NCBI GenBank assembly: GCA_948144175.1
Contig: CANXME010002107.1
Span: forward strand, 968,501 to 1,032,500
DNA from: Closterium sp. NIES-65
Taxonomy: Eukaryota; Streptophyta; Zygnematophyceae; Desmidiales; Closteriaceae
Reading direction: 5' to 3'
Length of the DNA: 64,000 nucleotides
Of the stretch, positions 18,173-50,823 are shown in pieces (the stretch's first letter is position 1; each line of letters starts with the position of its first letter). The notes below the pieces were generated by a model. That model was not told where the DNA came from. It searched no databases and saw only the letters and a list, made by a program, of their open reading frames with translations. The position numbers and the translations under genes were made by a program.

Positions 18173-19343
18173 TCGTCGCCCGATGGAAGGTGGACAGTTC
18201 GGGTTGATATGGTTACAACATACGGCACATTGTTGTGGAGGTGTATCGTATGGATATAGATTGCATAATGTATATTGCCATATCATTTAAAACACAAAAT
18301 TTGTCATAAACATCCCCTTTCATATGAGCCAACGACGCCAACAACTACGAGCGGGGACGCCCATATTTAGAGAACAAGCAACCCCGCACTAACAACGGTC
18401 CTAATCCTTTCAATATGGCACCAGGTTGGTGCCACCAACGCAACGCCACCTCTGTGCACTTCGACAACTTCGTCAGGCGCAGCGGCACTCAACAAGTCTT
18501 CAGCGGCCCCAACTGCACATGTCTCAGAAGACGCAATTATAATGAAGCACGATGCCTTTGCAAGAACAAAAAGCAAGCTTTCTCAATCCTAGTGTTCACT
18601 TAACATTATAATTTTTAAACACACATTGTGTTTTTTAAAATTGTGTGTTGTGAAAGCGAAGCTGCTTGTACTGCACAATTGGCATCGTCGAAGCGCGCTA
18701 AACGCCCTTCTCCAACTACAAAAACAGTGGGTTGGAGTTCATTTCCCTCCACCCACGCTTCTCGATTTTCAAACGGCTCACTCAACATTCCCACCACCCA
18801 CCCCAGAGTAAACCGCCTTGCTAATGCCACTTGGATAGGGTACATCTTAGCTAGTGTTATTCCCTTGCACTAGCTTGTGTTCAACGTTGATGCAAATGTT
18901 GTAATAAGCCATTTGTAATGAGAACGATGCCAATTGATAAGAATAAGAAAGCAAGCTTTCTCAGTCTACTATCTTGACAGTGGGGCAGGGAGATCGCGGC
19001 AGATACACTTATCTTGGAATGCGGCAATGTGACAATGTAGTATCCACAGTTCACCCAGTGCAGTTCTGATTGAAGAGTCACCTCCTCCTCACTTAAAACC
19101 TGCGGGCCAAGAACTTCAACTGTAGGAAGCTTGGTTGGATGGCAACACAATTGGCCAAGATTTTGGGTGTGAGAGCCAAACTCAACCAAGGTTAGGAAGG
19201 TTGAGGCAATTTGGCCCTTCTTAGCCCTCCAGTTTTAACGGTAAAGATTTGCTAGTTGGTATGGTATTGTGTTTTGCCAGCATTGTAAAATCAACATTTT
19301 CAGAAGTCGGGATCCTAGGGGCTAGTGGGTAAGCAGTGCAAGT

Positions 19344-19476
19344 TGTCAAATTATATATATGCTATATATGTTTAGGCTGTAGTGGGGTAGCCAATATGGT
19401 ATACAGCCCCTTCTAGGGTTTCATATTTGTACCCAACACTTTCCTAGTTCATTCATTCCTGCCTAGCATTCTGACA
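19344..19476 (+). repeat. 5' LTR of copia B (133 bp)
   Basis: TGTCAAATT...CTGACA, followed at once by the primer site TGGTATTTAGAGC. CAAGT precedes it. Confidence 0.9.
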
Positions 19477-19499
19477 TGGTATTTAGAGCAGTAGGTCCG

Positions 19500-19630
19500 T
19501 GTGAAACTAACAGAACAGGAATGAATTGACTAAGTCAGAGTTGGGTACAAATACAACCCTAGCAAACTGTACCCCATATGTGCTACCCCACTATAGCCTA
19601 CAAACATGCATCAGCCATAATAATCTGACA
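19500..19630 (-). repeat. 3' LTR of copia A
   Basis: 131 bp, minus-strand TGTCAGATT...TTTCACA, identical to 26903-27033. Confidence 0.96.
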
Positions 19631-19807
19631 CACCCCCATAGGCAAAGTGGGGGAGAACAAGGGGTCACAAGACCAGTCAAGCAAAGCAAAGCAAAGCAAG
19701 CTCAGGGTGGATCACAAAGTCACCACACAGTCCGAGCACAAGAGCAGGGCCAGAGGCCAGTTCACATGCAGGAGTACAGACATATATATAACAAAGTACA
19801 AGTAAAG

Positions 19808-22800
19808 TCAAGAAGAGAGCAAGTGAGGCAAGACAGGTACAAGACCCAGCTGGGTACAAAAGCGCTGATGGTCACAAGGCGCAAGTGCCTTGGTGAACAC
19901 ATCAGCAGTGTTGGCCTCAGAGGCCACGTAAGCAAGTCGCAACTGACCACGCTGCTGCAGCTCACGAGCAAGGAAGTAGCGGAGAGCAATGTGCTTCGTT
20001 CTGTGCTCCAAGCGCTGCTCTCGACACAAGGCCAGCATGGCCTTGTTGTCTACGTACAGCACTGGAGGAGAACGAGGCGGCTCTCCAAGGTCGGTCAGCA
20101 GGTAGGTGAGCCAGCGAAGCTCCTGTGCAGCCATGGCCCCGGCGTAGATCTCAGCCTCACAACTGGAGCCGAGAACTGAAGACGAGCGAGTAGACCGCCA
20201 CGAGACAGAACCGGAACCAAGGCTGAAGGTGTAACCCTGTGACGACCGCTGCGTAGCCTGGTCGTCAGCCCAAGAAGCGTCCGCGTGGCCGGTAAGGACC
20301 ACTGGACTCCGCCCTCCAAGCACTAGCCCCATGCCCGACGTACTGCACAGGTAGCGCAATACCCTCTTCGCTGCAGCCATGTGCTCCGGTCTGTGTCTCC
20401 CAGGAGCAACATAGCGTGCAAGAATGCTCAGAGGGTATGCAAGGTCAGGTCGTGTGCAGGTCATCAGGTACATGAGGCAGCCAACAAGCTCTGCATACGG
20501 ACCACTCGACTCTACGGACTCATCCGAAGGCAGAGCTGAGAGTGAGTGGCGAGTAGGCAGAGGAGTGGCCTGAGGCGAGGAGTACGTGAAGCCGAAGCGC
20601 TGAAGGACCTGCTGCACCATGTGTGACTGAGTCAGGGTAATGGTGCGACGTGCTCTGTCCCGAGTGATCTGCAAGCCAAGGTAGCTGCGCAGTTCACCCA
20701 GGTCTGTGCACGTGTGTCTCTTCAGCAGCCCGGACTTCACGTAGGCGAGTCCAGCAGTGTCCGCTGTGGCAAAGACCAAGTCGTCGACGTACACGAGGAT
20801 GTAGAACGGCGGCAGGGAAGTGTCGGTGCGAAGAAACAGCGACGGGTCAGCAGTAGAAGGAGCAAACCCAAGAGCCGCAAGCGTAGTCCTCAGTGTGTCG
20901 TGCCACTCACGCGGTGCCTGGCGGAGACCGTAGACTGGCCGTCGGAGGCTCCACTGGGTGCCAGGAGGGAAAGTCCCAGTGAAGCCAGGCGGACGGCGCA
21001 GCCAGATCTCCTCGTGCAGGCTACCCTGCAGGAACGCAGTGCTGAAGTCGAGAGAGTGAAGCTCGTAGTCGCGCTGAGCGGCAATGTGCAGCAACACCCG
21101 AAGAGTGGTCATCTTCGGGGTGGGAGAGAAGGTCTGAAAGTAGTCAACTCCCTGCCGCTGACTGAAGCCACGAGCCACGTAACGCGCCTTGAAGACAGGC
21201 GGGGAGCCCGGCGGCCGCTTCACCCTGAAGATCCACATGCCACTGACGATGTTCGCCCCAGGAGGGGGAACCGCGTCAACGTAGGTGCCTGTGGACTTCC
21301 AGGAAGCCATCTCTGCATCCATAGCTGCCTGCCACTGAGAGGAGTAGGGACCCTCTACGGCCTCCGCGTAAGAACGCGGAGTCGGGATGTCTAGTGCATC
21401 CGGGTCTCCCTCAGGGGCAAGCAGTACAGACGCGAGATGAGGTGAAGCAGCCGCTAGACACTGTAACTCCTCCTGCCTGTCCTCTAGGACGTCCGTGCCA
21501 AGGGCACACTCACCCCCGACGGACGGAGGACAGGCGGACTCAGACTCAGCGACAAGACGAGCAGCGTAGTCTAGACGACAGCGCGCAGCAAAGTCGACAA
21601 GCTCAGTGACAAGGGCAGACGCAGCAGACGACTCGAAGGAAGGGTCAGTGACAGCAGTAGCAAGGAGACGCGTGACAGTAGGACTGGCAGCACGAAGAGA
21701 GTCCGACTCCGGGTCGGCAAGAGCAGGAAGAGAGGAAGGAGGAGGAGAAGGCAAAGGGGCACGCAGAGGAGCAGTGGACGGACGCAGTGACATCCGGTGC
21801 GTGCCAGGGACAGGAGGAGGACGCTGACGCGACCCGCGACCACTAGCGCGCTCAGTACGAACAGGCGACGCAGGACGAGACGCAGGCTCACGACGCTCAG
21901 TAAGACCTCCAGTCGGACCAGCGTAGGGAGAAGGAGCAGGCAAAGGGGAGGCAGGCTGTAGCTGTGGCTGTGACCGAACAGGCTGTGGACCCTCTAAGGG
22001 AGCAGGAGGAGGTGCAAGACTAAGAACCTGCTGCAGGAGCGGAACGAAGTACGGTCGGGGCCGCACGGCGACACCAGAAACAGCAGGAACAGCACCAGCC
22101 CCCCCGTCAGGAGCACCCACGCCAGCAGCACCTCCAGCAGCACCTCCAGAAGCTCCAGAACCCCCAGTAGCAGCACCAGGAGCACTGTCAGTCGGACCAC
22201 CAGCGGCAGGCTCAGCGCCAACACCCTCAGCAGCACCAGCTCCAGGAGAACCCTCAGACCGAGCAGCTCCAGCACCCACAGTACGAGCACCGTCGGGACG
22301 CGCGGCAGCAGTACCTATTGCAGGCGAAGAACCACCAGCACCAGCAGCACGCCTCCAGCGCCTGGTAAACCACTCACGCAGCTCCTGTGGGGAGAGTGGC
22401 TCCCGGCGAGACGAAGCACCCCCAGGCACAGTACCCCCAGGCTCAGCACCCCCAGGCTCAGCACCCCCAGGCTCAGCACCCCCAGGCTCAGCACCCCTAG
22501 GCTCAGCACCCCCAGGCTCAGCACCCCCAGGCTCAGCACCCCCAGGCACAGCACCCCCAGGCTCAGCACCCCCAGACTCAGCACCCCCAGGCACAGCACC
22601 CCCAGGCTCAGCACCCCCAGACTCCGCACCTCCAGGCTCAGCTCCCGCAGCAGCACCAGAGTCACCAGTGACCTCGACAGGCTCGACCGCGTCTACCTGG
22701 GACACACCTGAAGGGGCAGGACCCTGAGGGGGGAGGGGGACTACCGGGGGGGGACCTGGTACCAAGAAGAGCGGGGGAGGGGGGAGGGACGGAGTGCGGT

Positions 22801-24439
22801 AGGGGAAGAGGCGGTAGTAGGGTACCGACTCGTCGAACGTGACGTCCTGGGAGGACAGAACACGTCGAGAGGTGGGGTGGTAAAACTGCCACCCAGGGGC
22901 GTCGGGGGGGAACCCCAGGAAGACGCAGGGAGAAGCACGAGGGGACAGCTTGTCCGCAGTCAGGTCGCGAACAAACGCCCGAGATCCCCAGACCCGGAAC
23001 GCCGACGCATCGCCAACCTTCCCCGTCCACAGCAAGGCTGGGGAGGTCTCCGGTCGAGAGACCCTGGGGTGGAGGTTGATCTGGTGCGCAGCGTACCTGA
23101 CCGCAAACGGCCACAAAAAATGGGGAGCAGCCGCATGCATCATGGACGTACGAGCGACGTCCATGACCATGCCAATGCGGCGCTCAGCAATCCCATTCTG
23201 CTGTGGTGAGTCCGGAAGCGTGAAGGTCTGACGGATGCCTCGCGCACGACAGTAGGCACTCAGGAGGCCAGAGGAGAACTCTCCGCCTCTGTCCGAGTGC
23301 AGACGCAAAACAGGGAAGTCAGAGCCAAAGCTCCTCCGAAGCTGGAGACGAGCTGCGCGGATCCAGTCGATCAACACCGCAGTGACCTCACCCTTGCTGC
23401 GCAAAGGGAAGACTGTGGTGTAACGCGAGTAGTCGTCAACCACCAGCAGGAAGTAGCGCTCCTGACCCTGTCCACGGACGCGGGCTGGGCCCCACACGTC
23501 CATGTGAAGCGTCTGCAACGGGGCCTCTGTCGGAGGAAACTGGGAGGAGTGAGGGGCAGCACGCTGGCGCCCCTCGACACAGGGGACACAGGGAGGGCCA
23601 GGGCCCGGAGGAAAGGGAGGGAGGGACTGGGGAAGACCAGACACAAGTACCCGCGAGGCCATGCCTCTGAGCCGGAGCAGAGAGGGGTGGCCAAGGCGGT
23701 GGTGCCAGAGGAGGGTCTCGTGAGACAGACGACGACACGAACAGGGGGCAGACTCAGGACCAGACCTGGACGCTGCAGCAAACACCTGACCAGACGAGGG
23801 GACCCTACCAGACGCAGTACCTGGAGGAGAAGCAGTGGTCAGTGTGTACAGGCTCGACCCTGGCCGACGTGTAAACGTAGCCAGGTGACGACCTGTATCC
23901 GCCTCCGTACAGTGGGTCACCCGCTGACGAGCAGGGGTGAACTGGTGGACACCTGCATCCTGGAGGTCAGCACCACTCACCAAGTTCGTCGAGAACGAGG
24001 GGAGGTAGAGACCAGTCAGGGTGCAAGAGGGGGCCGCCGGACACGGGAGGACAGTGGAGAAGCGAGACAGGACAGGTCCCCCAGAGGGGTCAGCCAGGGA
24101 CACCGCAACCGGTCGACTCAGCGGCGTGAGAGTGGTGCGGTCCCTAAAGAAGGAGCGAGACGCTCCAGAGTCAAGGGTGAAGGTGTGAGAGGCCGAAGCC
24201 GACACAGTACCTGAGAGGGCGGACTCACCAGCACCTGAGAGCACAGACGTACTGGCACCTAGAGCAGCAGCCTCACTAGTACCTGACGCGGCAGTACCAA
24301 TGCCCGGGTCGGGCGGGAAACACCGGTAACAGTCATCCTTATCACTACCAGTCAGAGCATACATAGCAGAGAGAATAGCATCAAAGTCAAGATCATAAAT
24401 AGCTACTCCAGCCCTAGACAGCTCTCCCCAGCGGGGGAT
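19808..24439 (-). CDS. Copia A Pol (PR-IN-RT-RNaseH)
   Basis: Open from the codon after the gag TAG to TGA near 19808, about 1540 codons; the first Met is at 24364. Counting from that Met: aspartic protease at about residue 65 (FTLDSGASRSFF); GAG-pre-integrase HHCC finger (LLWHHRLGHPS to CVPCVEG); integrase catalytic D, D, E in DVWGP (~287), SDRGGEF (~355) and NGIAERR (~390). A low-complexity spacer built from GGAEP repeats follows (15-bp DNA units, about 22425-22640). Copia-type RT has FSTAFLQGSLHEEIWL and catalytic YVDD (~1191). RNase H begins GHADASWADD (~1361) and ends near NTADVFTKAL. No internal stop, so this is potentially functional. Expression needs readthrough of, or restart after, the TAG at 24440-24442. 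Confidence 0.95.
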   Translation of the reverse strand: MPRWGELSRAGVAIYDLDFDAILSAMYALTGSDKDDCYRCFPPDPGIGTAASGTSEAAALGASTSVLSGAGESALSGTVSASASHTFTLDSGASRSFFRDRTTLTPLSRPVAVSLADPSGGPVLSRFSTVLPCPAAPSCTLTGLYLPSFSTNLVSGADLQDAGVHQFTPARQRVTHCTEADTGRHLATFTRRPGSSLYTLTTASPPGTASGRVPSSGQVFAAASRSGPESAPCSCRRLSHETLLWHHRLGHPSLLRLRGMASRVLVSGLPQSLPPFPPGPGPPCVPCVEGRQRAAPHSSQFPPTEAPLQTLHMDVWGPARVRGQGQERYFLLVVDDYSRYTTVFPLRSKGEVTAVLIDWIRAARLQLRRSFGSDFPVLRLHSDRGGEFSSGLLSAYCRARGIRQTFTLPDSPQQNGIAERRIGMVMDVARTSMMHAAAPHFLWPFAVRYAAHQINLHPRVSRPETSPALLWTGKVGDASAFRVWGSRAFVRDLTADKLSPRASPCVFLGFPPDAPGWQFYHPTSRRVLSSQDVTFDESVPYYRLFPYRTPSLPPPPLFLVPGPPPVVPLPPQGPAPSGVSQVDAVEPVEVTGDSGAAAGAEPGGAESGGAEPGGAVPGGAESGGAEPGGAVPGGAEPGGAEPGGAEPRGAEPGGAEPGGAEPGGAEPGGTVPGGASSRREPLSPQELREWFTRRWRRAAGAGGSSPAIGTAAARPDGARTVGAGAARSEGSPGAGAAEGVGAEPAAGGPTDSAPGAATGGSGASGGAAGGAAGVGAPDGGAGAVPAVSGVAVRPRPYFVPLLQQVLSLAPPPAPLEGPQPVRSQPQLQPASPLPAPSPYAGPTGGLTERREPASRPASPVRTERASGRGSRQRPPPVPGTHRMSLRPSTAPLRAPLPSPPPSSLPALADPESDSLRAASPTVTRLLATAVTDPSFESSAASALVTELVDFAARCRLDYAARLVAESESACPPSVGGECALGTDVLEDRQEELQCLAAASPHLASVLLAPEGDPDALDIPTPRSYAEAVEGPYSSQWQAAMDAEMASWKSTGTYVDAVPPPGANIVSGMWIFRVKRPPGSPPVFKARYVARGFSQRQGVDYFQTFSPTPKMTTLRVLLHIAAQRDYELHSLDFSTAFLQGSLHEEIWLRRPPGFTGTFPPGTQWSLRRPVYGLRQAPREWHDTLRTTLAALGFAPSTADPSLFLRTDTSLPPFYILVYVDDLVFATADTAGLAYVKSGLLKRHTCTDLGELRSYLGLQITRDRARRTITLTQSHMVQQVLQRFGFTYSSPQATPLPTRHSLSALPSDESVESSGPYAELVGCLMYLMTCTRPDLAYPLSILARYVAPGRHRPEHMAAAKRVLRYLCSTSGMGLVLGGRSPVVLTGHADASWADDQATQRSSQGYTFSLGSGSVSWRSTRSSSVLGSSCEAEIYAGAMAAQELRWLTYLLTDLGEPPRSPPVLYVDNKAMLALCREQRLEHRTKHIALRYFLARELQQRGQLRLAYVASEANTADVFTKALAPCDHQRFCTQLGLVPVLPHLLSS

Positions 24440-24442
24440 CTA
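24440..24442 (-). other. Single in-frame TAG between copia A gag and pol
   Basis: Gag and Pol are in the same phase on both sides of this codon, and nothing else interrupts either. Either suppression yields a Gag-Pol fusion or the element carries one inactivating change. Confidence 0.7.
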
Positions 24443-24662
24443 AGCGGCCTCCGGAAACTGCTGACGCCAGGCGTCGGTCAGGCGGCCAAAGCAGCGACGG
24501 GCTGTGTGGGCGCCTCCACACCTCTCCCCTGCACGGTCACCGGTGCGAAGAACGTAGGGGCAGGGACCAAGCGCACCACCGCGCTGACGCTGCAAGTACC
24601 ACTCACGGAGCTGCTGAGGGCCGGGGACGGTGCGAGAGCGCTGCTGCTGCTGCGGCTGCTGG

Positions 24663-24697
<35 letters not shown>

Positions 24698-25750
24698 CTG
24701 ACCACCCCCAGAGCTGCTCCGCTGGGACGAGCCACTCCGACCCCCGCCTCCACCGCCACCCCCGCCTCCACCGCCACCCCCGTCTCCACCGCCACCTCCC
24801 CCACCAGGACCGTCGCTCCCACCGCTCCCACCGCCTCCTCCGCTACCACCTCCACCGCCACCAGTACCTCCACTCCCGCCACCACCCCCACCGCCACCCC
24901 CACTCCCCCCTCCACCCCCACCGCCTCCTCCACCGCCCCCTCTAGCTCCACCCGCTCCCTTGCCCCCCTTGCCCTTGCCAGAGCGGCGTCTGCCGCTGGG
25001 GGCAGACGCCGCGCCGACCGACTCAAAACCAGCGAGGTCGGCCGCAGCGGCAGAGGCTACAGAGGGCAGCAGGGGGGAAGGACCACACCCCTCAAAGATG
25101 GGGGTGCGAGGGTCACCCCGAGAGGCCCCTACAGCGACAATACTCTTCTCAGCCGCTAGCAGGGACTCCTCAAGGAGGTCGACAGTGAGAGTGGTGGGAC
25201 AGACAGAGAGAAACTGGTCCCTAACGACACGAAGGGACTCAGGGAGACGGGTGACGAGAAAGTAGAGAGTGATGTACATGGGAGGAGGGTTGGCAGCACG
25301 GAACTCAGCAGGAAGGGCAGCGCGGTAGCGGGTGTCACTAGCGCGGAGGTGGGTAACGAGGTCAGCAACAGTGGGAAAGGAAGCGAGGTCAGGGAAGAGA
25401 AACGGTAGCATGAGGCGGCTAAGGGTAGCGGAGGAAGGGGAGGAGTAGCGTGCAACTACAGCGTCGTACAAGGCCTGAGCGGTCTTGCACTGACTAAAGT
25501 GGGCACGCTCAGAGGAAGGGAGGTGGCGACGCACAGCAAGACGTGCAGCAGCATCGCGGGTCGCCCACTTGGAGCGAGCAGCAGAGTCAGCATCAGCAGG
25601 CGGGGCAGGGACAGCGCCAGAGACAAAGTCAAAGAGAGAGACCTCATCTATCGCATCACACAGTAAGTACAGCTGCAGGTCTTCAATCCAGACGGCAAAG
25701 TCAATGGCCCTCCCCTCAGCGTCAAAAGTAAGAACATTGGGGGTGGCCAT
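24440..25750 (-). CDS. Copia A Gag with polyglycine tract and atypical CCHC
   Basis: Particle protein. I start at the ATG at 25750 because the MATP-VL-FDA opening is shared with C and D; an in-frame ATG lies seven codons upstream. Residues 1-230 are a UBN2/copia-type gag region (AIDFAVWIEDLQLYL, HFSQCKTAQALYDAVVARYSS, PMYITLYFLVTRLPESL). A roughly 90-residue Gly-rich tract and a polyglutamine tract follow. A putative metal-binding motif C-x13-C-x3-H-x4-C comes just before the end, replacing the usual knuckle. It ends with TAG, directly followed in frame by pol (IPRWGEL); in D the residue at that spot is Glu. Confidence 0.9.
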
Positions 25751-25789
25751 GGCAGCAGCTGAAAGTCTCACCGGGCTAGGAGAGTCGGG

Positions 25790-26870
25790 TAGGACAGCAG
25801 CAGGCAGCTCGGGCTGGGTCGGGCGGCTCGGGCGGCTCGGGCGGCTCGGGCGGCTCGGGTAGCTCGGGTACCGGGCGGCTCGGCTGCTGCTGGGCGGCTC
25901 GGCTGCTGCTGTGCGGCTCAGCTGCTGCTGGGCGGCTCGGCTGCGGCTGGGCGGCTCGGCTGCTGCTGGGCGGCTCGGCTGCGGCTGGGCGGCTCGGCTG
26001 CTGCTGGGCGGCGCGGCTGCTGCTGGGCGGCTCAGCTGCTGCTGGGCGGCTCGGCTGCGGCTGGGCGGCTCGGCTGCTGCTGGGCGGCTCGGCGGGGCCG
26101 TCAGGGTGCAGCTGCGGGGCCGGGACAGGGGACGGCGGAGCCGTCAGGTGGCGGGCCAGCAGGTGAGGTGGCGAGCCGTCGGGTGAGGCGGCGGGGCCGT
26201 CAGGTCAGGTGGCGGGCCAGCAGGTGAGGCGGCGGGGCCGTCAGGTCAGGTGGCGGGCCAGCGGGTGAGGCGGCGGGCCGTCAGGTGAGGTGGCGGGCCA
26301 GCAGGTCAGGCGGCGGGCCGTCAGGTGAGGCGGCGGGGCCGTCAGGTCAGGTGGCGGGCCAGTAGGTGAGGCGGCGGGCCGTCAAGTGAGGCGGCGGGGC
26401 CGTCAGGTAAGGTGGCGGCGGGCCGTCAGGTGAGGCGGCGGGGCCGTCAGGTAAGGTGGCGGGCCAGCAGGTGAGACGGTGGGCCGTCAGGTGAGGCGGC
26501 AGGGCCGTGTGGTGAGGTGGCGGGCCAGAAGTCGAGGCGGCGGGCCGTCAGGTGAGGCGGCGGCCGTCAGGTAAGGCGGCTGCGGGGCCGTCAGAGGTGC
26601 AGCGGGGGGGGGGGGCCTGCTGCAGCGACGAAGAGGCCGCGCGGCCGTCTGGAGGGCGGCGCGGCGCGGCAGAGCAGAGAGGGCGGCGCGGCGCGGCTGT
26701 AAGGGCCGCGCGAAGTGGGGCCTGGGCCGCGCGCGCGAAAAAAAATTGAGTCGCGCGCGCGCGACTCTCGGGGCGCCACAAGGGCAGCTCGACGCGCACT
26801 AGGGGGAGCGCGCCTCGGGGAGAATAGGGCGCGCTCCGGGCAGGAAAAAAAATCGTGGGTGGGCCCAAAG
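25790..26870 (-). repeat. GC-rich tandem repeat leader of copia A
   Basis: Between primer site and gag. One block (25870-26090) repeats ggctcggctgctgctgggc-type units. A second (26130-26580) repeats ~42-base units containing gcggggccgtcaggt and ggtggcgggccagcagg. Not coding. Confidence 0.8.
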
Positions 26871-26873
26871 AAC

Positions 26874-26890
26874 GGTCCTTAGGAGGGACC
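26874..26890 (-). promoter_or_regulatory. Post-PBS hairpin of copia A
   Basis: GGTCC / GGACC arms, seven-base loop, directly after the primer site in element orientation, followed by a T-rich stretch and GGGCCCAC. Confidence 0.6.
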
Positions 26891-26902
26891 CGCTCTATAC
26901 CA

Positions 26903-27033
26903 TGTGAAACTAACAGAACAGGAATGAATTGACTAAGTCAGAGTTGGGTACAAATACAACCCTAGCAAACTGTACCCCATATGTGCTACCCCACTATAGC
27001 CTACAAACATGCATCAGCCATAATAATCTGACA
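26903..27033 (-). repeat. 5' LTR of copia A
   Basis: 131 bp, identical to 19500-19630. The primer site on its left in plus coordinates reads ctctatacca. Confidence 0.96.
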
Positions 27034-27039
27034 GTCCGT

Positions 27040-27730
27040 AGGACCGATTTTTTTAGGGCCCACCTACCGTTGCGGTTACTGCGCTGCCCCACGTCGTGCC
27101 TGCGCTGCGCTGCCCGCGCGCGCCCTGCCTTGCCTGCTCTGTGCTGCCCGCGCACGCCTCTGCCTTGCCTACGCGCGCTGCCCTAGTCCCGAGCGCGCCG
27201 ACTGGTCCTGCCCCACGCGCCGCCTTAGGAGCCCGCGCGCGGCCCGCTACTACCCCGCGCGCCGCCTTAGGAGCCCGCGCGCGGCTCGCTGCTGCCCCGC
27301 GCGCCGCGTCCGCCACCCATGCAGCCCGCTGCTGCCCCGCGCGCCGCGTCCGCCGCCCATGCAGCCCGCTGCTGCCCCGCGCGCCGCGTCCGCCGCCCAT
27401 GCAGCCCGCTGCTGCCCCGCGCGCCGCGTCCGCCGCTCGCGCAGCCCGCTGCTGCCCCGCGCGCCACGTCCGCCGCCCACGCAGCCCGGTGCTGCCCAGC
27501 GCGCCGCGTCTGCCACCCTAGCGCGGCCCGCTCCTGCCTCGCGTGCTGCCTTACCCACCCGCGCGCCGCTTCAGCAGCCTGCGCACGTTTTGCCGCTGCT
27601 CTGCGCACCGCCCTAGCCACGTGCGTGCCGCCTCAGCAGCCTGTTCGCCGCCACTGCCGCCCTGTGCGTAGCTTCTCCTGTCTGTGCTCTGCCTTGCCAC
27701 CTACGCGCTACTCTCACCTGCGTTGCACTC
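27040..27730 (+). repeat. GC-rich tandem repeat leader of copia B
   Basis: Starts taggaccgatttttttagggcccacc, the right half of B's leader hairpin split by A. It then shows ~42-bp units around cccgctgctgccccgcgcg and ccgcgtccgccgcccatgcag (about 27270-27520). Ends at the B gag ATG. Confidence 0.8.
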
Positions 27731-40755: not shown

Positions 40756-40797
<42 letters not shown>

Positions 40798-41977: not shown

Positions 41978-44267
41978 GCTACCCCTCCTCCTTCGGTAGC
42001 CTCTCCGGTACAGCCTCCCTCCCCACAGTCCTCCTCGCAGCGTGCCGCAGGTGCTAGCTCTCGAGAGGTTGGTGCTGCGCCTGTTCCTGTACCGGTTTCT
42101 GGTTCTGGGGGTGGTGGAGTTGGAGTTGGAGTTGGAGCTGGAGTTGGAGCTGGAGTTGGCACTGGAGTTTCTGGTTCTGGGGGTGCTGGGGTTGGAGCTG
42201 GAGTTGGAGCTGGAGTTTCTGGTTCTGGAGTTGGAGCTGACCCGGTGGGTGCAGAGGACTCTTGTTGTCCGGGAGCTGGTGCTGGTCGCGCGGACACTGG
42301 GGGTGAGAGTGCGCCTCCTTCGGGTTCTGGCGAGCCTGGGTCTGGAGCTGGTGTTAGTGCTGCCTCTGGGGGTGGTGCGCCTGGTTCTTCGGGGGTGGAC
42401 TCTGGAGCTACCGCTGCTTCGGACACTACTCCGCCCCCCCACCCCTACCCGACTAGGCACCAGGCTCGTGTTCGCCGTGCCCGTGACGAGCAGCTGGCGT
42501 TGGAGAGAGAGGAGAGGGAGTTACAGCGGCTGGAGGAGCAGCAGCAGCAGCTGGAGCCGCAGGAGCAGCAGCAGCAGCAGCAACAGCTGGACCCGCAGGA
42601 GCAGCAGTCCCAGCAGCAGCCGCTTCCGCAGCAGCAGCAGTCGCAGCAGCAGCAGCAGCAGCCACTTCCTCCTCCTGTCTCGGGTCTTCGGACCCTTGGT
42701 CTCCCCTCCCCTTCTCCTCCCTCCTCCGCCTCTCCTCCTGTCTACGGTCCCACGTTTCCTCCTCCTGACTCCTCCCCCGCTGTTTTCCCCAGTTCTCCGC
42801 CTTTGTCCTCTCCTCCTCCGTCTCGTTCTTGGGCTACTCGTCGCTCCCCTCGTGCTCGTCCCTCGTCTCCTGTTCCCTTCACTGACCTTCGTACTGCCTT
42901 CCTTCTTTCTAGTCCACCTCGTCCGTCTCAGTCTGTGCTTCCGTCTCCTCCTGAGTCGGCCCTCACTGTGTCGCTCCCTACTCCTGTCACTGACTACTAC
43001 CGCACGTACCGTCTAGTTCTCTCTCGTGTTCTCGCCTCTCTTGTTACTCACCCTCGTGCCTCTGTGTCCTCTGTGTCCGCTCTTACTGCCGCAGTTACTG
43101 ACTTTGCCTCTACCCGCCGCCTTGACTACGCCACCACGCTTGTGGCTGCTCCTCCTACCAGTCCTCTGGCCGTCGGGGGTGTGTCTGCCCTTGGCTGTGA
43201 CGCCCTAGAGGACAGGCAGTTTGAGCTAGAGTTCCTGGCGGCCGCTTCCCCTCATCTCTGTGCCATGCTCCTCGCCCCTGAGGGTGACCCCGACGCCCTT
43301 GACATTCCGACTCCTCGCACTTACGCTGAGGCAGTGTCAGGGCCTTGGGCCTCTCAGTGGAGAGCTGCCATGGACGCAGAGATGGCCTCCTACAGATCCA
43401 CAGGCACCTACGTCGATGAGGTTCCCCCCCCTGGGGCGAACGTAGTCGACGGCATGTGGATCTACAGGGTGAAGCGGCCACCGGGATCTCCCCCGGTCTT
43501 CAAGGCGCGCTACGTGGCTAGAGGTTTCAGTCAGCGTGAGGGAGTTGACTTCTTTCAGACCTTCGCACCTACCCCGAAGATGACCACTCTTCGGGTGTTA
43601 CTACACGTAGCAGCACAGAGAGACTACGAGTTACACTCTCTCGACTTCTCCACTGCTTTCCTTCAGGGCAGCCTACACGAGGAGGTCTGGTTGCGTCGTC
43701 CCTCGGCCTTCACTGGCACCTTCCCTCCTGGGACCCAGTGGAGGCTGAGGCGACCTGTTTACGGTCTTCGCCAGGCCCCTCGTGAGTGGCACGACACTCT
43801 GCGTTCTACCCTCTCTAACCTTGGGTTCCAGCCGTCTTCTGCCGACCCGTCGCTGTTCGTTCGTCGTGGCTCCACACCGTTCTTTGTTCTGGTTTACGTC
43901 GACGACCTCGTTTTCGCCACTCCGGACAGGGTTGCTTTGGCAGACGTGAAGTCCGAACTGCAGAAGAGACACACGTGCACTGATCTTGGTGAGCTGCGCC
44001 ACTACCTTGGCCTGCAGATCACCAGGGACAGAGCCGCTCGCACCATTACACTCTCACAGTCACACATGGTGCAGCAGGTCCTTCAGCGGTTCGGGCTTCA
44101 GCACTCCACCGTACAGCGCACACCTCTAGCTGTTGACCACAGACTCACTGGTCCCTTTCCTGACGAGCCGTTTGAGCCTAGTGGTCCCTACGCAGAGCTT
44201 GTGGGTTGCCTCATGTACCTGATGACTTGTACTCGCCCGGACCTCGCCTTCCCTCTCAGCATCCTTG
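41978..44267 (+). CDS. Copia C spacer-RT, in frame after TAG, truncated
   Basis: Continues the polyprotein frame. First comes a low-complexity spacer with GVGVGAG-type and Gln repeats (to ~42680), then Ser/Pro-rich sequence, then copia RT with FSTAFLQGSLHEEVWL and catalytic YVDDL near 43895. The frame enters the LTR of element D at 44268 in the RT-RNase H connection (RPDLAFPLSIL). RNase H is missing. The element cannot be autonomous as it stands. Confidence 0.9.
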
Positions 44268-44401
44268 TGTCGGATTATTATAACTGATGCATGTTTGTAG
44301 GCTGTAGTGGGGGGTAGCACATATGGGGTACAGCTTTCTAGGGTTGTATTTGTACCCAACTCTGACTTAGTCATTCTCATTCCTGTTTTCCTTGCTTCAC
44401 A
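44268..44401 (+). repeat. 5' LTR of copia D (134 bp)
   Basis: TGTCGGATT...GCTTCACA, closely similar to the A LTR with a few substitutions and small indels. Confidence 0.9.
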
Positions 44402-44413
44402 TGGTATAGAGCG

Positions 44414-44430
44414 GGTCCTGCCTTAGGACC
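44414..44430 (+). promoter_or_regulatory. Post-PBS hairpin of copia D
   Basis: GGTCC / GGACC arms and seven-base loop, then a run of T and GGGCCCACC. Confidence 0.6.
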
Positions 44431-44499
44431 GTTTTTTTAGGGCCCACCGAAGCGCGCCCCGAGGCGCGCCCTTTTTTTTTTTAGCGACCCCTCGGGTCG

Positions 44500-45425
44500 C
44501 CTTTTCCCTCGCGGCCCCGCTGTCCCTCAGACGCGGCCCCGCCACCTCTCCTGATCGCGGCCCCGCCGCCTGCTTGACGCGGCCCCGCCGCCTCCCCTGA
44601 CGCGGCCCCGCCGCCTCCCCTGAAGCGGCCCCGCCGCCTCCCCTGACGCGGCCCCGCCGCCTCCCCTGACGCGGCCCTGCCTCTACTGCCGCGGCCCAGC
44701 CGCCGCCTCTGACGGCCCCGCCGCTGCACCCTACGGCCCGCCGCTGCACCCTACGGCCCGCCGCCTCTGACGGCCCCGCCGCTGCACCCTACGGCCCGCC
44801 GCTGCTCCTGCCGGCCCGCAGCCTCACCTGACGGCCCCGCCGCTGCTCCTGCCGGCCCGCCGCTGCTCCTGCCGGCCCGCCGCCTCACCTGACGGCCCCG
44901 CCGTTGCTCCTGCCGGCCCGCCGCTGCTCCTGCCGGCCCGCCGCTGCACCCAGCGGCCCGCCGCTTCACCTGACGGCCCCGCCGCTGCACCTGCCGGCCC
45001 GCCGCTGCACCCTACGGCCCGCCGCTGCACCCTACGGCCCGCCGCCTGCACCTGCAGGCCCACCGCTGCACCTGCCGGCCCGCCGCTGCACCTGCCGGCC
45101 CGCCGCTGCACCTGCCGGCCCGCCACTGCACCGGTCGACCCGCCGCTGCACCTGACGGCCCCGCCCCTGCATCTCCCGGCCGAGCCGCCCCAGCAGCCGA
45201 ACCGCCCGGGAGCCGAGCCGCCCAACGCCGAGCCGCCCGGGACCCGAGCCGCCCTGCCGCCGAGCCGCCCGGGAGCCGAGCCGCCCTGCACCCGAGCCGC
45301 CCAGCCGCCGAGCCGCCCGGGAGCCGAGCCGCCCTGCGCCCGAGCCGCCCAGCCGCCGAGCCGCCCGGGAGCCGAGCCGCTGTGCACCCGAGCCGCCCGG
45401 TCGCTGAGCCGCCTCTCTGCATAGC
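44500..45425 (+). repeat. GC-rich tandem repeat leader of copia D
   Basis: Array 1 (44520-44690): ~23-base cgcggccccgccgcctccc units. Array 2 (44710-45170): ~20-base cggcccgccgctgcacct units. Array 3 (45180-45420): cgagccgcccgggagccgagc units. Long open frames over these arrays exist in several phases only because stop codons cannot occur in the repeats. Confidence 0.8.
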
Positions 45426-45512
45426 TGCACGACCTGCCCTGCCTGGTGAGCACAGTCCCACTGACACTGCGAGCTCTTTCCCTACTGCTTGCACTGCGTC
45501 GCTGTCGTCGCC

Positions 45513-46778
45513 ATGGCTACCCCTAGTGTCCTAGCTTTTGACGCTGAGGGTCGCGCCATTGATTTTGAGGTCTGGTTAGACGACCTGCAGCTGTTCTTAC
45601 AGTGCGACAGGGCTGACGACCTTTCTCTCTTTGACCTCACCTCTGGCGCCTCTCCTGCCCCTGCTGCTGATGCTGATCCCGCTGTCCGCTCTAAGTGGGC
45701 CACCCGCGATGCTGCTGCACGTCTTGCTGTGCGTCGCCACCTCCCTACCTCTGAGCGTGCGCACTTTAGTCAGTACAAGAGTGCTCAGACCTTGTACGAC
45801 GCTGTAGTTGCGCGCTACTCCTCCCCTGCCACTGCTGCACTGAGCCGTCTCATGCTTCCCTACCTCTTTCTTGACCTCTCTGCCTTTCCCACTGTCGCTG
45901 ACCTCATTACACACCTCCGCACTAGTGACACTCGCTACCGCGCCGCCCTTCCTGCTGAGTTCTGCGCTAAGAACCCCCCCCCCATGTACATCACTCTCTA
46001 CTACGTAGTCGCGCGCCTCCCTGACTCCCTTCGCGTCGTCAGGGACCACTTTCTCGCAGTCTGTCCCACCACCCTCACCGTCGACCTCCTCGAGAAGGCC
46101 CTCCTCGCAGCGGAGAAGAGCATAGTCGCTGTAGGTGCTTCTCGTGGTGACCCTCGCACCCCCATCTTTGAGGGGTGCTCTCCTTCCCCCTTGCTGCCCT
46201 CTGTTGCCTCTGCTGCTGCTGCCGACCTGCTTGGTCTTGAGTCGGTCGGCGCGGCGTCTGCCCCTAGTGGGAGACGTCGCTCCAGCAAGGGCAAGGGGGG
46301 CAAGGGCGCGGGTGGAGCTGGAGGGGGCGGTGGCGGTGGCGGCGGTGGCGGCGGAGGGAGTGGGGGTGGCGGCGGGACTAGTGGCGGAGGTGGTGGTGGT
46401 GGTGGCAGCAGTGGCGGAGACGGTGGTGGTGGTGCCAGCGGTGGTGGTGGAGGCAGCGGCGGTGGTGGAGGCGGCGGAGGTGGAGGCGGTGGAGGCGGCA
46501 GCGGAGGAGGAGGTGGTGGTGGTGGAGGTGGAGCTGGTCGAGGTGGTACCCAGCAGCGTAGCGGCGGTGGTGGTGGCCAGCGCTCGCAGCGGCAGCAGCA
46601 GCAGCGCTCGCGGGACATCCCTCCGCCTCAGCAGCTTCGTGAGTGGTATGCTGGGCGTCAGAGGGGTGGGGGTACTGGTCCCTGCACCTACGTTCTTCGT
46701 TCCGGCGACCGCGCGGGTGAGCAGTGTGGGGGTGCCCACGCCACCCAGCGCTGCTTTGGCCGCCTGACGGACGCTTAG
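45513..46778 (+). CDS. Copia D Gag
   Basis: Starts at the ATG 45513 (MATPSVLAFDAEG), matching A. UBN2-type gag region (VWLDDLQLFL, HFSQYKSAQTLYDAVVARYSS, PMYITLYYVVARL), about 90 residues of nearly pure glycine, then C-x13-C-x3-H-x4-C (CTYVLRSGD to CF). It ends at TAG 46776-46778 (RLTDA then stop), where A reads Trp. Pol follows in the same frame. Minus-strand proline-rich frames opposite the glycine tract are shadows. Confidence 0.9.
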   Translation: MATPSVLAFDAEGRAIDFEVWLDDLQLFLQCDRADDLSLFDLTSGASPAPAADADPAVRSKWATRDAAARLAVRRHLPTSERAHFSQYKSAQTLYDAVVARYSSPATAALSRLMLPYLFLDLSAFPTVADLITHLRTSDTRYRAALPAEFCAKNPPPMYITLYYVVARLPDSLRVVRDHFLAVCPTTLTVDLLEKALLAAEKSIVAVGASRGDPRTPIFEGCSPSPLLPSVASAAAADLLGLESVGAASAPSGRRRSSKGKGGKGAGGAGGGGGGGGGGGGGSGGGGGTSGGGGGGGGSSGGDGGGGASGGGGGSGGGGGGGGGGGGGGSGGGGGGGGGGAGRGGTQQRSGGGGGQRSQRQQQQRSRDIPPPQQLREWYAGRQRGGGTGPCTYVLRSGDRAGEQCGGAHATQRCFGRLTDA

Positions 46779-49700
46779 CGTCAGCAGTTCCCTGGGGCTA
46801 GTGAGATCCCTCGCTGGGATGAGCTTCTCAGGGCTGGTGTAGCGATCTTCGATCTTGATTTTGATGCTATCCTTGCTGCTATGTATGTTGTGGATTATAG
46901 TGAGGAGAATGAGGGTTACCGTTGTTTCCAGCCCGACCCGGGCATTGGTACTGCTGCGCTAGGTGCTTGTGAGGCTGCTGCTCTAGGTGCCAGTGCGTCT
47001 GTGCTCTCAGGTACTGGTGAGACTGCGCTCTCAGGTACTGCGTCGTCCTCGTCCTCCCTCACTTTCACACTTGACTCCGGAGCTTCTCGCTCCTTCTTTC
47101 GAGACCGCACTACCCTTACGCCGCTCGGCCGGCCGGTTACGGTCTCCCTTGCTGACCCCTCTGGGGGTCCTGTCCTGTCTCACTTCTCCACTGTCCTCCC
47201 GTGTCCGGCTGCCCCTTCGGGCACCCTGTCGGGTCTGTACCTTCCCTTGTTCTCTACGAACTTGGTGAGTGGAGCGGACCTGCAGGATGTGGGGGTTCAC
47301 CAGTTCACTCCTGCGAGTCAGCGGGTGACCCACTGCACGGAGGCACGCACAGGCCGACACCTGGCCACGTTCTCGCGTCGGCCGGGGTCGAGTCTCTACA
47401 CCCTGACCGTTGAGTCTCCTCCTGTCTCTGCGTCTGGTCAGGTGGCTGCGTCGGGTCAGGTGCTTGCTGCTGCGTCCCGGTCAGGTCCTGAGTCTGCCCC
47501 ATGTTCTTGTCGCCTCCTGACTCACGAGACTCTCCTGTGGCACCACCGTCTTGGCCACCCCTCCTTGCCCCGTCTTCGGAGCATGGCTTCCCGTGTCCTT
47601 GTCTCTGGTCTTCCCCAGTCTCTCCCTCCTCTCCCCTCCGGGCCAGGACCTTCCTGTGTCCCCTGTGTCGAGGGTCGCCTCCGGGCTACTCCTCACTCCT
47701 CCCACTTCCCCCCGACAGAGGCTCCCCTGCAGACGCTTCACATGGATGTGTGGGGCCCAGCCCCCGTCCGTGGGCAGGGTTACGAGCGCTACTTCCTGTT
47801 GGTGGTTGACGACTACTCGCGTTACACCACAGTCCTCCCCTTGCGCAGCAAGGGTGCGGTCACTGAGGTACTGATCGACTGGATCCGCGAGGCTCGTCTC
47901 CAGCTCAGGAAGAGCTTCGGCTCGGACTTTCCTGTTCTGCGTCTGCACTCTGACAGAGGCGGAGAGTTCTCTTCTCGCCTTCTGCGGGACTACTGTCGTG
48001 CACGGGGGATCCGCCAGACCTTCACGCTTCCGGACTCACCACAGCAAAATGGGATTGCTGAGCGCCGCATTGGAATGGTCATGGATGTCGCTCGTACGTC
48101 CATGATGCATGCGGCTGCCCCCCATTTTCTGTGGCCGTTTGCGGTGAGGTACGCGGCGCATCAGCTCAACCTTCACCCCCGGGTCTCTCGGCCTGCGATG
48201 TCCCCAGCCTTGCTGTGGACGGGGAAGGTTGGCGATGCGTCTGTGTTCCGTGTCTGGGGATCTCGGGCGTTTGTCCGCGACTTGTCTGCGGACAAGCTGT
48301 CCCCTCGTGCTGCTCCCTGTGTCTTCCTTGGCTTCCCCACTGACGCCCCAGGGTGGCAGTTTTACCACCCCTCCTCTCGTCGTGTTCTGTCCTCCCAGGA
48401 CGTCACGTTCGACGAGTCAGTCCCCTTCTACCGTCTCTTCCCCTACCGCACTCCTTCCATCCCCCCTCCCCCGGACTTCCTTGTGCCGGTTCCCCCCCCG
48501 GTAGACCCCCTCCCCCCTCAGGTTCCTGCCCCCTCAGGTGTGTCCCAGGTAGACGCCGTTGACCCGGTCGAGGTTACTGGTGACTCTGGTGCTGCTGCGG
48601 GTGCTGAGCCTGGGGGTGCTGACTCTGGGGGTGCTGTGCGCGGGGGTGCTGAGCCTGGGGGTGCTACTGCTGGGGGTGCTGGGCCTGAGGGTGCTACTGC
48701 GGAGGGTGCGGAGCCTGGGGGTGCTGAGCCGGGGGGTGCTGTGCCTGGAGGTGCTGGGTCTGGGGGTGCTGGGTCGGGAGCTGCTGAGCCTGGGGGTGGT
48801 GAGCTGGGAGCTGCAAAGCCTGGGGGTGCTGCGTCTGGAGCTGCTGAGCCTGGGGTTTCTTCTGCTGCTGCGTCTCGCTGGGAGCCCCTCTCTCCACAGG
48901 AGCTGCGCGAGTGGTTCGCTCGCCGCTGGAGGCGTGCTGCTGAGTCTGGAGGTGCTGCTGGAGCTGGAGCTGGAGCTTCTTCGACCGTCGAGGGTGCGGG
49001 TGCTGCCGGTCCCGGAGCTGCTGGACCTGCGGATCCTCCTGGAGCTGGAGCTGCTGGAGGCGCTGGTGCTGAGCCTACTGCTGTTGGTCCTGCCGCTGGA
49101 GGTGTGGGTGGCGCTGGTGCTGTCGCTGAGGGTGCTGGTGCTGTCCCTGCTGCGTCTGGAGCTGCCGCGCGGCCTCGGCCGTACTTCGTTCCCCTCCTGC
49201 AGCAGGTTCTTGGTCTTTCTCCTCCAGTAGAGGGTCCACCGCCTGTCCAGTCGCAGTCCCTGCTGGAGCCTTCCTCTCCACTGCCTGCTCCCTCTCCTTA
49301 CACTGGTCCTACTGGAGGTCTTGCTGAGCGTCGTGAGCCTGCGTCTCGTCCCGCGTCGCCTGTTCGCACTGCTCGCGCTAGTGGTCGCAGTTGGCGTCAG
49401 CGTCCTCCTCCTGTCCCTGGCACGCACCGGATGTCTTTGCGTCCGTCCACTGCTCCTCTGCGTGCCCCTTTGCCTTCTCCTCCTGAGTCCTCTCTTCCTG
49501 CGCTTGCCGACCCTGGGTCGGACTCTCTTCGTGCTGCCAGTCCTACTGTCACGCGTCTGCTTGCTACTGTCGTCACTGACCCCTCTTTTGAGTCCACTGC
49601 TGCGTCTGCTCTAGTCGCTGAGCTCGTCGACTTTGCTGCTCGCTGTCGTCTCGGCTACGCTGCTAGTCTTGTTGCTGAGTCTGCGTCTGTCTGTCCTCCG

Positions 49701-50657
49701 TCCGTCGGGGGTGAGTGTGCTCTTGGCACGGACGTCCTAGAGGACAGGCAGGAGGAGTTACAGTGTCTAGCGGCTGCTTCACCTCATCTCGCGTCTGTAC
49801 TGCTTGCCCCTGAGGGAGACCCGGATGCACTAGACATCCCGACTCCGCGTTCTTACGCGGAGGCCGTAGAGGGTCCCTACTCCTCTCAGTGGCAGGCAGC
49901 TATGGATGCAGAGATGGCTTCCTGGAAGTCCACAGGCACCTACGTTGACGCGGTTCCCCCTCCTGGGGCGAACATCGTCAGTGGCATGTGGATCTTCAGG
50001 GTGAAGCGGCCGCCGGGCTCTCCACCTGTCTTCAAGGCACGGTACGTTGCTCGTGGCTTCAGTCAGCGGCAGGGAGTTGACTACTTTCAGACCTTCTCTC
50101 CCACCCCGAAGATGACTACTCTTCGGGTGCTGCTGCACATAGCCGCTCAGCGCGACTACGAGCTTCACTCTCTCGACTTCAGCACTGCGTTCTTGCAGGG
50201 TAGCCTGCACGAGGAGATCTGGCTTCGCCGTCCACCTGGCTTCACTGGGACTTTCCCTCCTGGCACCCAGTGGAGCCTCCGACGGCCAGTCTACGGTCTC
50301 CGCCAGGCACCGCGTGAGTGGCACGACACACTGAGGACTACGCTTGCGGCTCTTGGGTTTGCTCCTTCTACTGCTGACCCGTCGCTGTTTCTTCGCACCG
50401 ACACTTCCCTGCCGCCGTTCTACATCCTCGTGTACGTCGACGACTTGGTCTTTGCCACAGCTGACACTGCTAGACTCGCCTACGTGAAGTCCGAGCTGCT
50501 GAAGAGACACACGTGCACAGACCTGGGTGAACTGCGCAGCTACCTTGGCTTGCAGATCACTCGGGACAGAGCACGCCGCACCATTACCTTGACTCAGTCA
50601 CACATGGTGCAGCAGGTCCTTCAGCGCTTCGGCTTCGGCTTCAGAGCTACACTGTGA
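46779..50657 (+). CDS. Copia D Pol (PR-IN-RT, truncated)
   Basis: Open from the codon after the gag TAG, first Met at 46881. Protease FTLDSGASRSFF near 47070. HHCC finger (LLWHHRLGHPS to CVPCVEG). Integrase D-D-E: DVWGP near 47747, SDRGGEF near 47950, NGIAERR near 48050. GGAEP-type repeat spacer (about 48595-48860). RT with FSTAFLQGSLHEEIWL and YVDDL near 50436. Ends in unrelated residues at 50657. RNase H is absent, so no active product is expected without help. Confidence 0.92.
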   Translation, partial: RQQFPGASEIPRWDELLRAGVAIFDLDFDAILAAMYVVDYSEENEGYRCFQPDPGIGTAALGACEAAALGASASVLSGTGETALSGTASSSSSLTFTLDSGASRSFFRDRTTLTPLGRPVTVSLADPSGGPVLSHFSTVLPCPAAPSGTLSGLYLPLFSTNLVSGADLQDVGVHQFTPASQRVTHCTEARTGRHLATFSRRPGSSLYTLTVESPPVSASGQVAASGQVLAAASRSGPESAPCSCRLLTHETLLWHHRLGHPSLPRLRSMASRVLVSGLPQSLPPLPSGPGPSCVPCVEGRLRATPHSSHFPPTEAPLQTLHMDVWGPAPVRGQGYERYFLLVVDDYSRYTTVLPLRSKGAVTEVLIDWIREARLQLRKSFGSDFPVLRLHSDRGGEFSSRLLRDYCRARGIRQTFTLPDSPQQNGIAERRIGMVMDVARTSMMHAAAPHFLWPFAVRYAAHQLNLHPRVSRPAMSPALLWTGKVGDASVFRVWGSRAFVRDLSADKLSPRAAPCVFLGFPTDAPGWQFYHPSSRRVLSSQDVTFDESVPFYRLFPYRTPSIPPPPDFLVPVPPPVDPLPPQVPAPSGVSQVDAVDPVEVTGDSGAAAGAEPGGADSGGAVRGGAEPGGATAGGAGPEGATAEGAEPGGAEPGGAVPGGAGSGGAGSGAAEPGGGELGAAKPGGAASGAAEPGVSSAAASRWEPLSPQELREWFARRWRRAAESGGAAGAGAGASSTVEGAGAAGPGAAGPADPPGAGAAGGAGAEPTAVGPAAGGVGGAGAVAEGAGAVPAASGAAARPRPYFVPLLQQVLGLSPPVEGPPPVQSQSLLEPSSPLPAPSPYTGPTGGLAERREPASRPASPVRTARASGRSWRQRPPPVPGTHRMSLRPSTAPLRAPLPSPPESSLPALADPGSDSLRAASPTVTRLLATVVTDPSFESTAASALVAELVDFAARCRLGYAASLVAESASVCPPSVGGECALGTDVLEDRQEELQCLAAASPHLASVLLAPEGDPDALDIPTPRSYAEAVEGPYSSQWQAAMDAEMASWKSTGTYVDAVPPPGANIVSGMWIFRVKRPPGSPPVFKARYVARGFSQRQGVDYFQTFSPTPKMTTLRVLLHIAAQRDYELHSLDFSTAFLQGSLHEEIWLRRPPGFTGTFPPGTQWSLRRPVYGLRQAPREWHDTLRTTLAALGFAPSTADPSLFLRTDTSLPPFYILVYVDDLVFATADTARLAYVKSELLKRHTCTDLGELRSYLGLQITRDRARRTITLTQSHMVQQVLQRFGFGFRATL

Positions 50658-50777
50658 GGTATCCGAGCGATGCTAGGGGGGGTTACAGGCACGTTTGCCT
50701 AGGGGGTTATGGGTGCACTGCACCACACTGAAACAAGCTCTTTTATCCTAATGGTCTAGTGGTTAGGAATTCTGACA
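50653..50777 (+). repeat. TRIM-family solo LTR at the stack's right junction
   Basis: TGTGAGGTATCC...TTCTGACA, about 125 bp, diverged relative of the 16318 TRIM LTR (shared ggttacaggcac, agggggttatgggtgcact, aacaagc-cttttatcc). Contains the same A-box match TGGTCTAGTGG at 50752-50762. No target duplication, so it may be part of the rearrangement that removed the D and C right ends. Confidence 0.72.
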
Positions 50778-50818
50778 ACATTGTCATATTTCATTCATTC
50801 CTGCCTAGATTTCTGACA
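50778..50818 (+). repeat. Copia B 3' LTR, terminal piece
   Basis: Ends ttcattcattcctgcctag-atttctgaca, matching the last ~30 bases of B's 5' LTR (19447-19476). Followed immediately by CAAGT, the partner of the CAAGT before 19344. Confidence 0.82.
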
Positions 50819-50823
50819 CAAGT

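What the first reader, a model, noticed from the sequence alone, without database searches (positions are those of the whole stretch)
19339..50823. One 31.5-kb nested transposon stack closed by matching CAAGT target duplications
CAAGT precedes the B 5' LTR (19344) and follows a 41-base LTR tail at 50778-50818. Between them lie two younger copia elements in B itself (A, C), a fourth (D) in C, a solo LTR of another family and a pogo element, each with its own diagnostic ends. The order of events follows directly: B, then C in its 3' LTR, D in C, and A, pogo and the solo LTR at other points of B.
Basis: partly seen in the sequence, partly recalled or inferred. Interest (0 to 1): 0.72.

Follow-up and report, generated by a model that had tools for sequence, protein, structure and literature searches.

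The report
Nested retrotransposon stack with empty site
One old jumping gene, in what is probably an algal genome, was hit by several younger ones and then lost a piece, and a duplicate of the same locus elsewhere in the genome still shows the spot without any of it; the kind of event is ordinary.

Summary
The stack is real and its borders are right. B is a copia element with a 133-bp LTR at 19344, flanked by CAAGT at 19339-19343 and 50819-50823. The 41 bases 50778-50818 are the end of B's 3' LTR: 35 of 41 match ungapped, and the next-best of the four other families tried scores 22 against 52. Contig C1165 carries a diverged, collinear duplicate of this locus where the two flanks meet at a single CAAGT with nothing between. 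So a net 31,480 bp was gained after the two loci diverged.

- C and D have no 3' ends. By analogy about 1.0 kb of C and 1.1 kb of D were deleted, plus 29 bp of B's LTR.
A repeated GGCTTC at 50637-50642 marks the break.
- The "solo LTR" is a 411-bp LTR interrupted by a 280-bp repeat.

Likely order: B, TRIM in its 3' LTR, C, D in C, then the deletion. A has identical LTRs. Nesting of this kind is well known. The TRIM family, with pol III-like boxes on either side of its primer-binding site, is the more unusual by-product.

The parts
19339..19343 (+). CAAGT, left target-site duplication of B
   Evidence: sequence; single CAAGT at the empty site in L081
19344..19476 (+). B 5' LTR, 133 bp, TG...CA
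   Evidence: LTR matches genome-wide (40 of 3867 candidates scored)
19477..19499 (+). B primer-binding-site region (TGGTAT...) with GTCCG target site of A at 19495-19499
19500..27033 (-). A, copia element with both LTRs (26903-27033 and 19500-19630, no mismatch over 131 aligned bases); TSD GTCCG 19495-19499 / 27034-27038
27039..33313 (+). B leader, gag and most of pol
   Evidence: collinear with L031/L032 at 84-91%
33314..33515 (-). LTR of another copia family, bases 1-202 of the query piece (TSD GAGGG 33309-33313 / 34005-34009)
   Evidence: family assigned through L065 gag
33516..33795 (.). 280-bp repeat inserted in that LTR; class not assigned
   Evidence: missing between the LTR pieces at 18 of 18 other scored places; its bases 297-482 of the query occur elsewhere at 98-100%, longer stretches at 85-86%
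33796..34004 (-). remaining part of the same 411-bp LTR
34010..34516 (+). B RNase H part of pol (named by position and kin; not scanned with a domain model)
34517..37620 (-). pogo-type DNA transposon, TA target 34515-34516 / 37621-37622, DDE_1 transposase pieces
37623..37897 (+). B 3' untranslated part
37898..37960 (+). B 3' LTR, positions 1-63
   Evidence: 55 of 63 match the 5' LTR
37961..44267 (+). C, copia element, 5' part only (LTR 37961-38070; pol cut by D)
44268..50636 (+). D, copia element of A's kin, 5' part only (LTR 44268-44401)
   Evidence: 82% to A over 6.5 kb, homology ends at 50636
50637..50642 (.). GGCTTC filler repeating the last six bases of D; deletion joint
50643..50777 (+). 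TRIM LTR positions 8-142 (first 7 bases lost)
50778..50818 (+). B 3' LTR, positions 93-133
   Evidence: 35 of 41 ungapped
50819..50823 (+). CAAGT, right target-site duplication of B

Best explanation
A copia LTR retrotransposon (B) integrated at CAAGT in one of two diverged duplicate copies of this locus. It then served as a landing site: an early TRIM in its 3' LTR; a copia LTR (with a 280-bp repeat in it), a pogo-type transposon and copia A in its body; copia C in its 3' LTR; and copia D in C. A deletion then fused D to the old TRIM LTR. It removed D's 3' end, C's 3' part and positions 64-92 of B's LTR, and left a six-base filler at the joint. The ends, the TSDs of A, B, the solo LTR and pogo, and the empty site are shown. 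The order TRIM before C, the deletion coming last, and the repair route are inferred.
For: Empty site: the right flank 50824-51300 gave 2 matches in the genome, itself and C1165:611489-611957 at 91% (2 of 2 candidates scored). L081 there reads the left flank (19276-19343, 90%) and right flank (50819-50920, 88%) through one CAAGT. C1165 is collinear on the right: window 59900-60900 at C1165:620589-621553, 95%; and on the left 18966-19250 matches C1165 at 93%. B pieces are collinear with two full-length copies, L031 and L032. Deletion: A and L018 continue past the point where D stops. The other hits to 50637-50823 end at query bases 139-146, i.e. at or near the TRIM end. Order: C's first 240 bases are 98-100% identical to the 39 other scored copies (40 of 2088 candidates scored), while the TRIM fragment is 121 of 136 (89%) to the nearest of four copies compared and at most 89% to the scored genome hits. 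So it was probably there before C.
Against: B's two LTRs differ at 14 of 104 sites, against 33 of 443 in the flanks compared with C1165 (Fisher p 0.08). B should be younger than the duplicate split, so the LTRs look, if anything, too diverged, and nearly all the excess sits in the 3' LTR. C and D have no right ends, so their TSDs cannot be tested. On C1165 only about 68 bases of left flank stand next to the empty CAAGT; further left that locus has its own insertions. No reads were available to check the assembly.
Confidence: 0.93

Rival explanations
1. The right end is a misassembly: an unrelated B LTR tail joined to D through collapsed TRIM repeats.
For: The joint runs through a TRIM LTR of a very common family (1387 first-look candidates, 40 scored), the kind of sequence at which assemblies break.
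Against: The tail is followed by the same CAAGT as the left end and by the flank that on C1165 continues directly from the left flank. The TRIM copy differs by about 11% from its nearest compared kin, so long reads should tell it apart.
Confidence: 0.04
2. The TRIM LTR was not old but was captured at a break, or integrated with only one good end, and itself caused the deletion.
For: The fragment keeps its 3' terminus exactly and lacks only 7 bases at its 5' end, directly at the joint.
Against: A newly copied TRIM should be near-identical to others; three complete copies have identical LTRs (L037, L038, L045), yet this one is 89% to its nearest compared kin.
Confidence: 0.12
3. B was ancestral at both loci and was lost precisely from C1165.
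For: LTR divergence (14 of 104) is numerically above flank divergence (33 of 443).
Against: LTR retrotransposons do not excise precisely (established knowledge); C1165 has one CAAGT and no LTR bases. The difference is not significant (p 0.08).
Confidence: 0.02
4. 50778-50818 is the tail of another LTR family.
For: It is short and 15% different from B's 5' LTR; several families here share LTR ends such as TTCTGACA. No genome search with the tail alone was possible (60-base minimum), and in the search with 50637-50823 the TRIM part dominates.
Against: Local scores: B 52, A 22, D 19, C 18, TRIM 16. The CAAGT and the empty site fit B's left end.
Confidence: 0.02

Closest known systems
Nested LTR-retrotransposon clusters of plants (e.g. 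PMC6911290: 1491 nested pairs in 12 plant genomes; start of the abstract seen in a search listing)
   Same: Younger LTR elements inside older ones, recognised by LTRs and TSDs.
   Different: Probably an algal host; the outer TSD pair is proven by an empty duplicate locus; the right end was rebuilt by a deletion ending in a TRIM LTR.
Ty1/copia LTR retrotransposons
   Same: Integrase before RVT_2 reverse transcriptase (A, C, D), short TG...CA LTRs, 5-bp TSD, TGGTAT... primer-binding site.
   Different: Short LTRs (110-134 bp) and Gly-rich or repeat-rich stretches in gag and pol.
TRIM / Helenus (PMC4717578, PMC10886601; passages read)
   Same: Two short LTRs, PBS, G-rich polypurine tract, no protein, 5-bp TSD; pol III-like boxes.
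   Different: Helenus carries the tRNA-like sequence within its LTRs; here the A-box-like motif is in the LTR end and the B-box-like motif in the internal part, with the PBS between.

Membership tests
Ty1/copia (A, B, C, D) | integrase upstream of RVT_2 reverse transcriptase | tested here: met
   A and D carry gag_pre-integrs, rve, SH3 and RVT_2 in that order; C carries them over two ORFs. B was not tested this way: one gag piece, scanned twice, gave no hit; B is filed by DNA identity to A/D and to L031/L032
Ty1/copia (A, B, C, D) | paired LTRs with 5-bp TSD | tested here: met
   A: GTCCG; B: CAAGT with empty site. Not testable for C and D, which lack 3' LTRs
pogo-type DNA transposon | DDE_1 transposase, TIRs, TA target | tested here: met
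   DDE_1 E 2.7e-16 for window 35098-35502 minus; TA both sides; 22 of the 30 terminal bases match between the two inverted ends. Which DDE_1 family it is was not tested
TRIM (50643-50777 and 16318-16664) | short element with two LTRs, PBS, no protein, copies with different TSDs | tested here: met
   14 distinct complete copies of 344-380 bp; 10 of the 11 rows listed have an exact 5-bp TSD. The window fragment at 50643 is one LTR only; its left TSD is gone
Helenus | tRNA-like sequence contained within the LTR | tested here: not met
   B-box-like GGTTCGAATCC lies in the internal part, not in the LTR; ARAGORN finds no tRNA in 7 of 7 loci given
solo LTR of a copia family (33314-34004) | one LTR with TSD, family with internal gag/pol elsewhere | tested here: met
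   TSD GAGGG. L065 carries two matches to the LTR, one truncated, around Retrotran_gag_2 and Pol_BBD above their cut-offs and rve below its cut-off. The LTR is interrupted by a 280-bp repeat

The most novel reading that the evidence does not exclude
The TRIM family whose old LTR closes the stack is transcribed by RNA polymerase III from a promoter split across the LTR end (A box), primer-binding site and internal region (B box), with a T-run just upstream serving as terminator in the 3' LTR. That would make a kind of TRIM in which the solo LTR is promoterless and the reverse-transcription primer site sits inside the promoter.
Probability: 0.25. Interest if true: 0.5.

Novelty: new member of a known kind. 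Interest (0 to 1): 0.3.

Why it matters
The locus gives a nearly base-resolved history with its own control: a duplicate locus in the same genome that lacks the insertion. It allows the age inferred from LTR divergence to be compared with the divergence of the flanks. It also shows how a deletion ending in an old miniature element can trim a nested stack. The split-box TRIM, if transcribed as its motifs suggest, would extend the small group of pol III-type TRIMs to what is probably an algal genome.

Tried and rejected
Rfam gave 0 matches in the window at gathering thresholds and ARAGORN 0 tRNAs, so the TRIM is not an annotated tRNA. C1165:580422-580708 was first read as the left half of an empty site. 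A gypsy-type insertion follows it there, and 30 kb of C1165 (565501-595500) held no right-flank match above 80 bits. The true junction was found only through the right flank, at 611489. The left flank is partly repetitive (40 of 721 candidates scored), so the weight rests on the right flank and on L081. The LTR asymmetry (3' LTR 9-12 private changes, 5' LTR 0-2, against each of 29 copies) was considered as a sign that B is a hybrid of two elements. It was not adopted because the TSD and empty site bind both ends together, and because the copies were picked for likeness to the 5' LTR, which biases the test. The class of the 280-bp repeat was not settled.

Paper searches: 'Closterium, genome assembly, Copia', 'Closterium psl, genome size' (29), 'nested insertion, LTR retrotransposon, TSD, green alga' (43), 'Closterium, NIES-65, transposable element' (52), 'nested TE, LTR retrotransposon, empty site, homoeolog' (129). 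No listed title or abstract start describes this stack; that is no proof it is unpublished. The host name is inferred, not shown: 874.08 Mb here against 876 Mb for Closterium psl. NIES-65 in PMC10407611, which also reports genome-wide gene duplication (outline with abstract, some passages and section 7 read).

Full report
What was checked. The window is G000:C1809:968501-1032500 of an 874-Mb, 2400-contig genome. CAAGT stands at 19339-19343 and 50819-50823. B's 5' LTR is 19344-19476, TG...CA, 133 bp. In the whole window, both strands, the next-best place scores 24 of 41; in 100 mononucleotide shuffles the best was 26. Local alignment scores of the tail were B 52, A 22, D 19, C 18 and TRIM 16. 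A genome search with the tail alone was not possible (60-base minimum).

The empty site. The search with the right flank 50824-51300 gave two matches: itself and C1165:611489-611957 at 91% (2 of 2 candidates scored). A 701-base stretch there (L081) reads left flank, one CAAGT, right flank with nothing between. It covers window 19276-19343 at 90% and 50819-50920 at 88%. The duplicate is collinear to the right: window 59900-60900 lies at C1165:620589-621553, 95%, 9,100 bases after the flank match against 9,076 in the window. Part of the left flank, 18966-19250, is also on C1165 at 93%, separated there from the junction by about 30.8 kb. The part of this that was read includes a gypsy-type element like the one in the window. 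A left-side gene search (5506-6500) did not complete. The 31,480 bases 19344-50823 are therefore a net insertion in one of two diverged duplicate loci.

B itself. LTR hits 7.1 kb apart led to two full-length copies, L031 and L032. Without removing anything, the window's B pieces match L031 in order: 19344-19500 (95%), 27034-27464 (84%), 27401-30479 (90%), 30464-33314 (88%), 34004-34505 (92%), 37630-37960 (86%) and 50776-50818 (86%); L032 gives the same order. Missing from B are LTR positions 64-92. The best other matches to B's 3' end are 86% identical (40 of 3789 candidates scored).

The guests. A (19500-27033, minus) has GTCCG on both sides and LTRs without a mismatch over 131 aligned bases. 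The LTR insert 33314-34004 has GAGGG on both sides. It is not one LTR: all 18 other scored places that match its bases 1-202 continue with base 483 or close to it, 16 directly and 2 after gaps of 2 and 9 bases; a 34-base stub at C1133 was not counted (40 of 2249 candidates scored). Bases 203-482 (33516-33795) are a separate repeat: its bases 297-482 occur elsewhere at 98-100%, longer stretches at 85-86%. A locus of the LTR's family (L065) carries copia-type gag and Pol_BBD, and an integrase match below the curated cut-off, on the strand opposite to its match with the window's LTR. The pogo-type element 34517-37620 lies between TA and TA and has DDE_1 (E 2.7e-16). C begins at 37961; its first 240 bases are 98-100% identical to the 39 other scored copies (of 2088 candidates). 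D begins at 44268 and is 82% identical to A over 6.5 kb. In A, C and D the gag-pol frame is split by an in-frame stop into two adjacent ORFs.

The right end. D's homology stops at 50636, where A and L018 continue. Then come GGCTTC, a repeat of D's last six bases, and 50643-50777, which is positions 8-142 of a TRIM LTR. By analogy with A and B, about 1,088 bp of D and 972 bp of C are gone. The TRIM fragment is 121 of 136 identical to the nearest of four copies compared and 82-89% to the scored genome hits (40 of 1387 candidates), while C is nearly identical to its scored kin. The simplest order is B, TRIM in B's 3' LTR, C, D in C, then one deletion from D to the TRIM. The six-base repeat would fit end-joining with slippage (established knowledge; not shown here).

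The TRIM family. Fourteen distinct complete copies, found by a pattern that demanded the LTR ends and the PBS, were aligned: 344-380 bp, LTRs about 138-142 bp. In a stricter scan, 10 of 11 listed rows have exact 5-bp TSDs and 3 have identical LTRs. TGGTCTAGTGG in the LTR end is exact in 13 of 14, GGTTCGAATCC in the internal part in 12 of 14, and TTTTAT upstream in 14 of 14. Between the longer (11) and shorter (3) subfamilies the block from the T-run to the B-box-like motif is 92.5% identical, against 81.3% for the LTR before it and 50.1% for the 60 bases after it; the block contains the PBS and LTR end required by the search, which inflates it. The A-box and B-box consensus are recalled. No tRNA is called in 7 of 7 loci given to ARAGORN. 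Helenus, the nearest published kind, has its tRNA-like sequence inside the LTR (PMC10886601, passages).

Ages. Flank divergence between the two loci is 33 of 443 sites (three stretches) and B's LTRs differ at 14 of 104; Fisher p 0.08. Against each of 29 compared LTRs, 9-12 of the differences are private to the 3' LTR and 0-2 to the 5' LTR. The compared copies were chosen for likeness to the 5' LTR, so this asymmetry is only suggestive and remains unexplained.

Verdict. The structure is a well-documented but ordinary nested cluster. The host is probably the green alga Closterium psl.

Noticed in passing
window 16318-16664: A complete TRIM (LTR 139, internal 69 bp, imperfect 5-bp TSD CCCTG/CCTTG) with A-box-like and B-box-like motifs on either side of the PBS; related to the fragment at 50643-50777.
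   Followed up: partly
L031 and L032 (C1662, C1523): Two full-length B copies share the same left flank (498 of 508 identical) and the same target bases CGACC, so B was duplicated along with the sequence it sits in.
   Followed up: partly
C1165:580708-611489: Between the same two flank points the duplicate locus carries about 30.8 kb of its own insertions, close to the 31.5 kb of the window's stack; content only partly read.
   Followed up: partly
window 33516-33795; L069: 280-bp repeat of unassigned class; in L069 a longer copy is followed directly by a second copy of about its first 56 bases.
   Followed up: partly
window 19344-19476 against 37898-37960 and 50778-50818: The 3' LTR remnant carries nearly all differences between B's LTRs, and 8 of 14 are transversions.
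   Followed up: partly
window 10363-15650: Gypsy element on the minus strand with reverse transcriptase, integrase and a chromodomain match below the cut-off (E 0.0015), and LTR pieces 97% identical.
   Followed up: no
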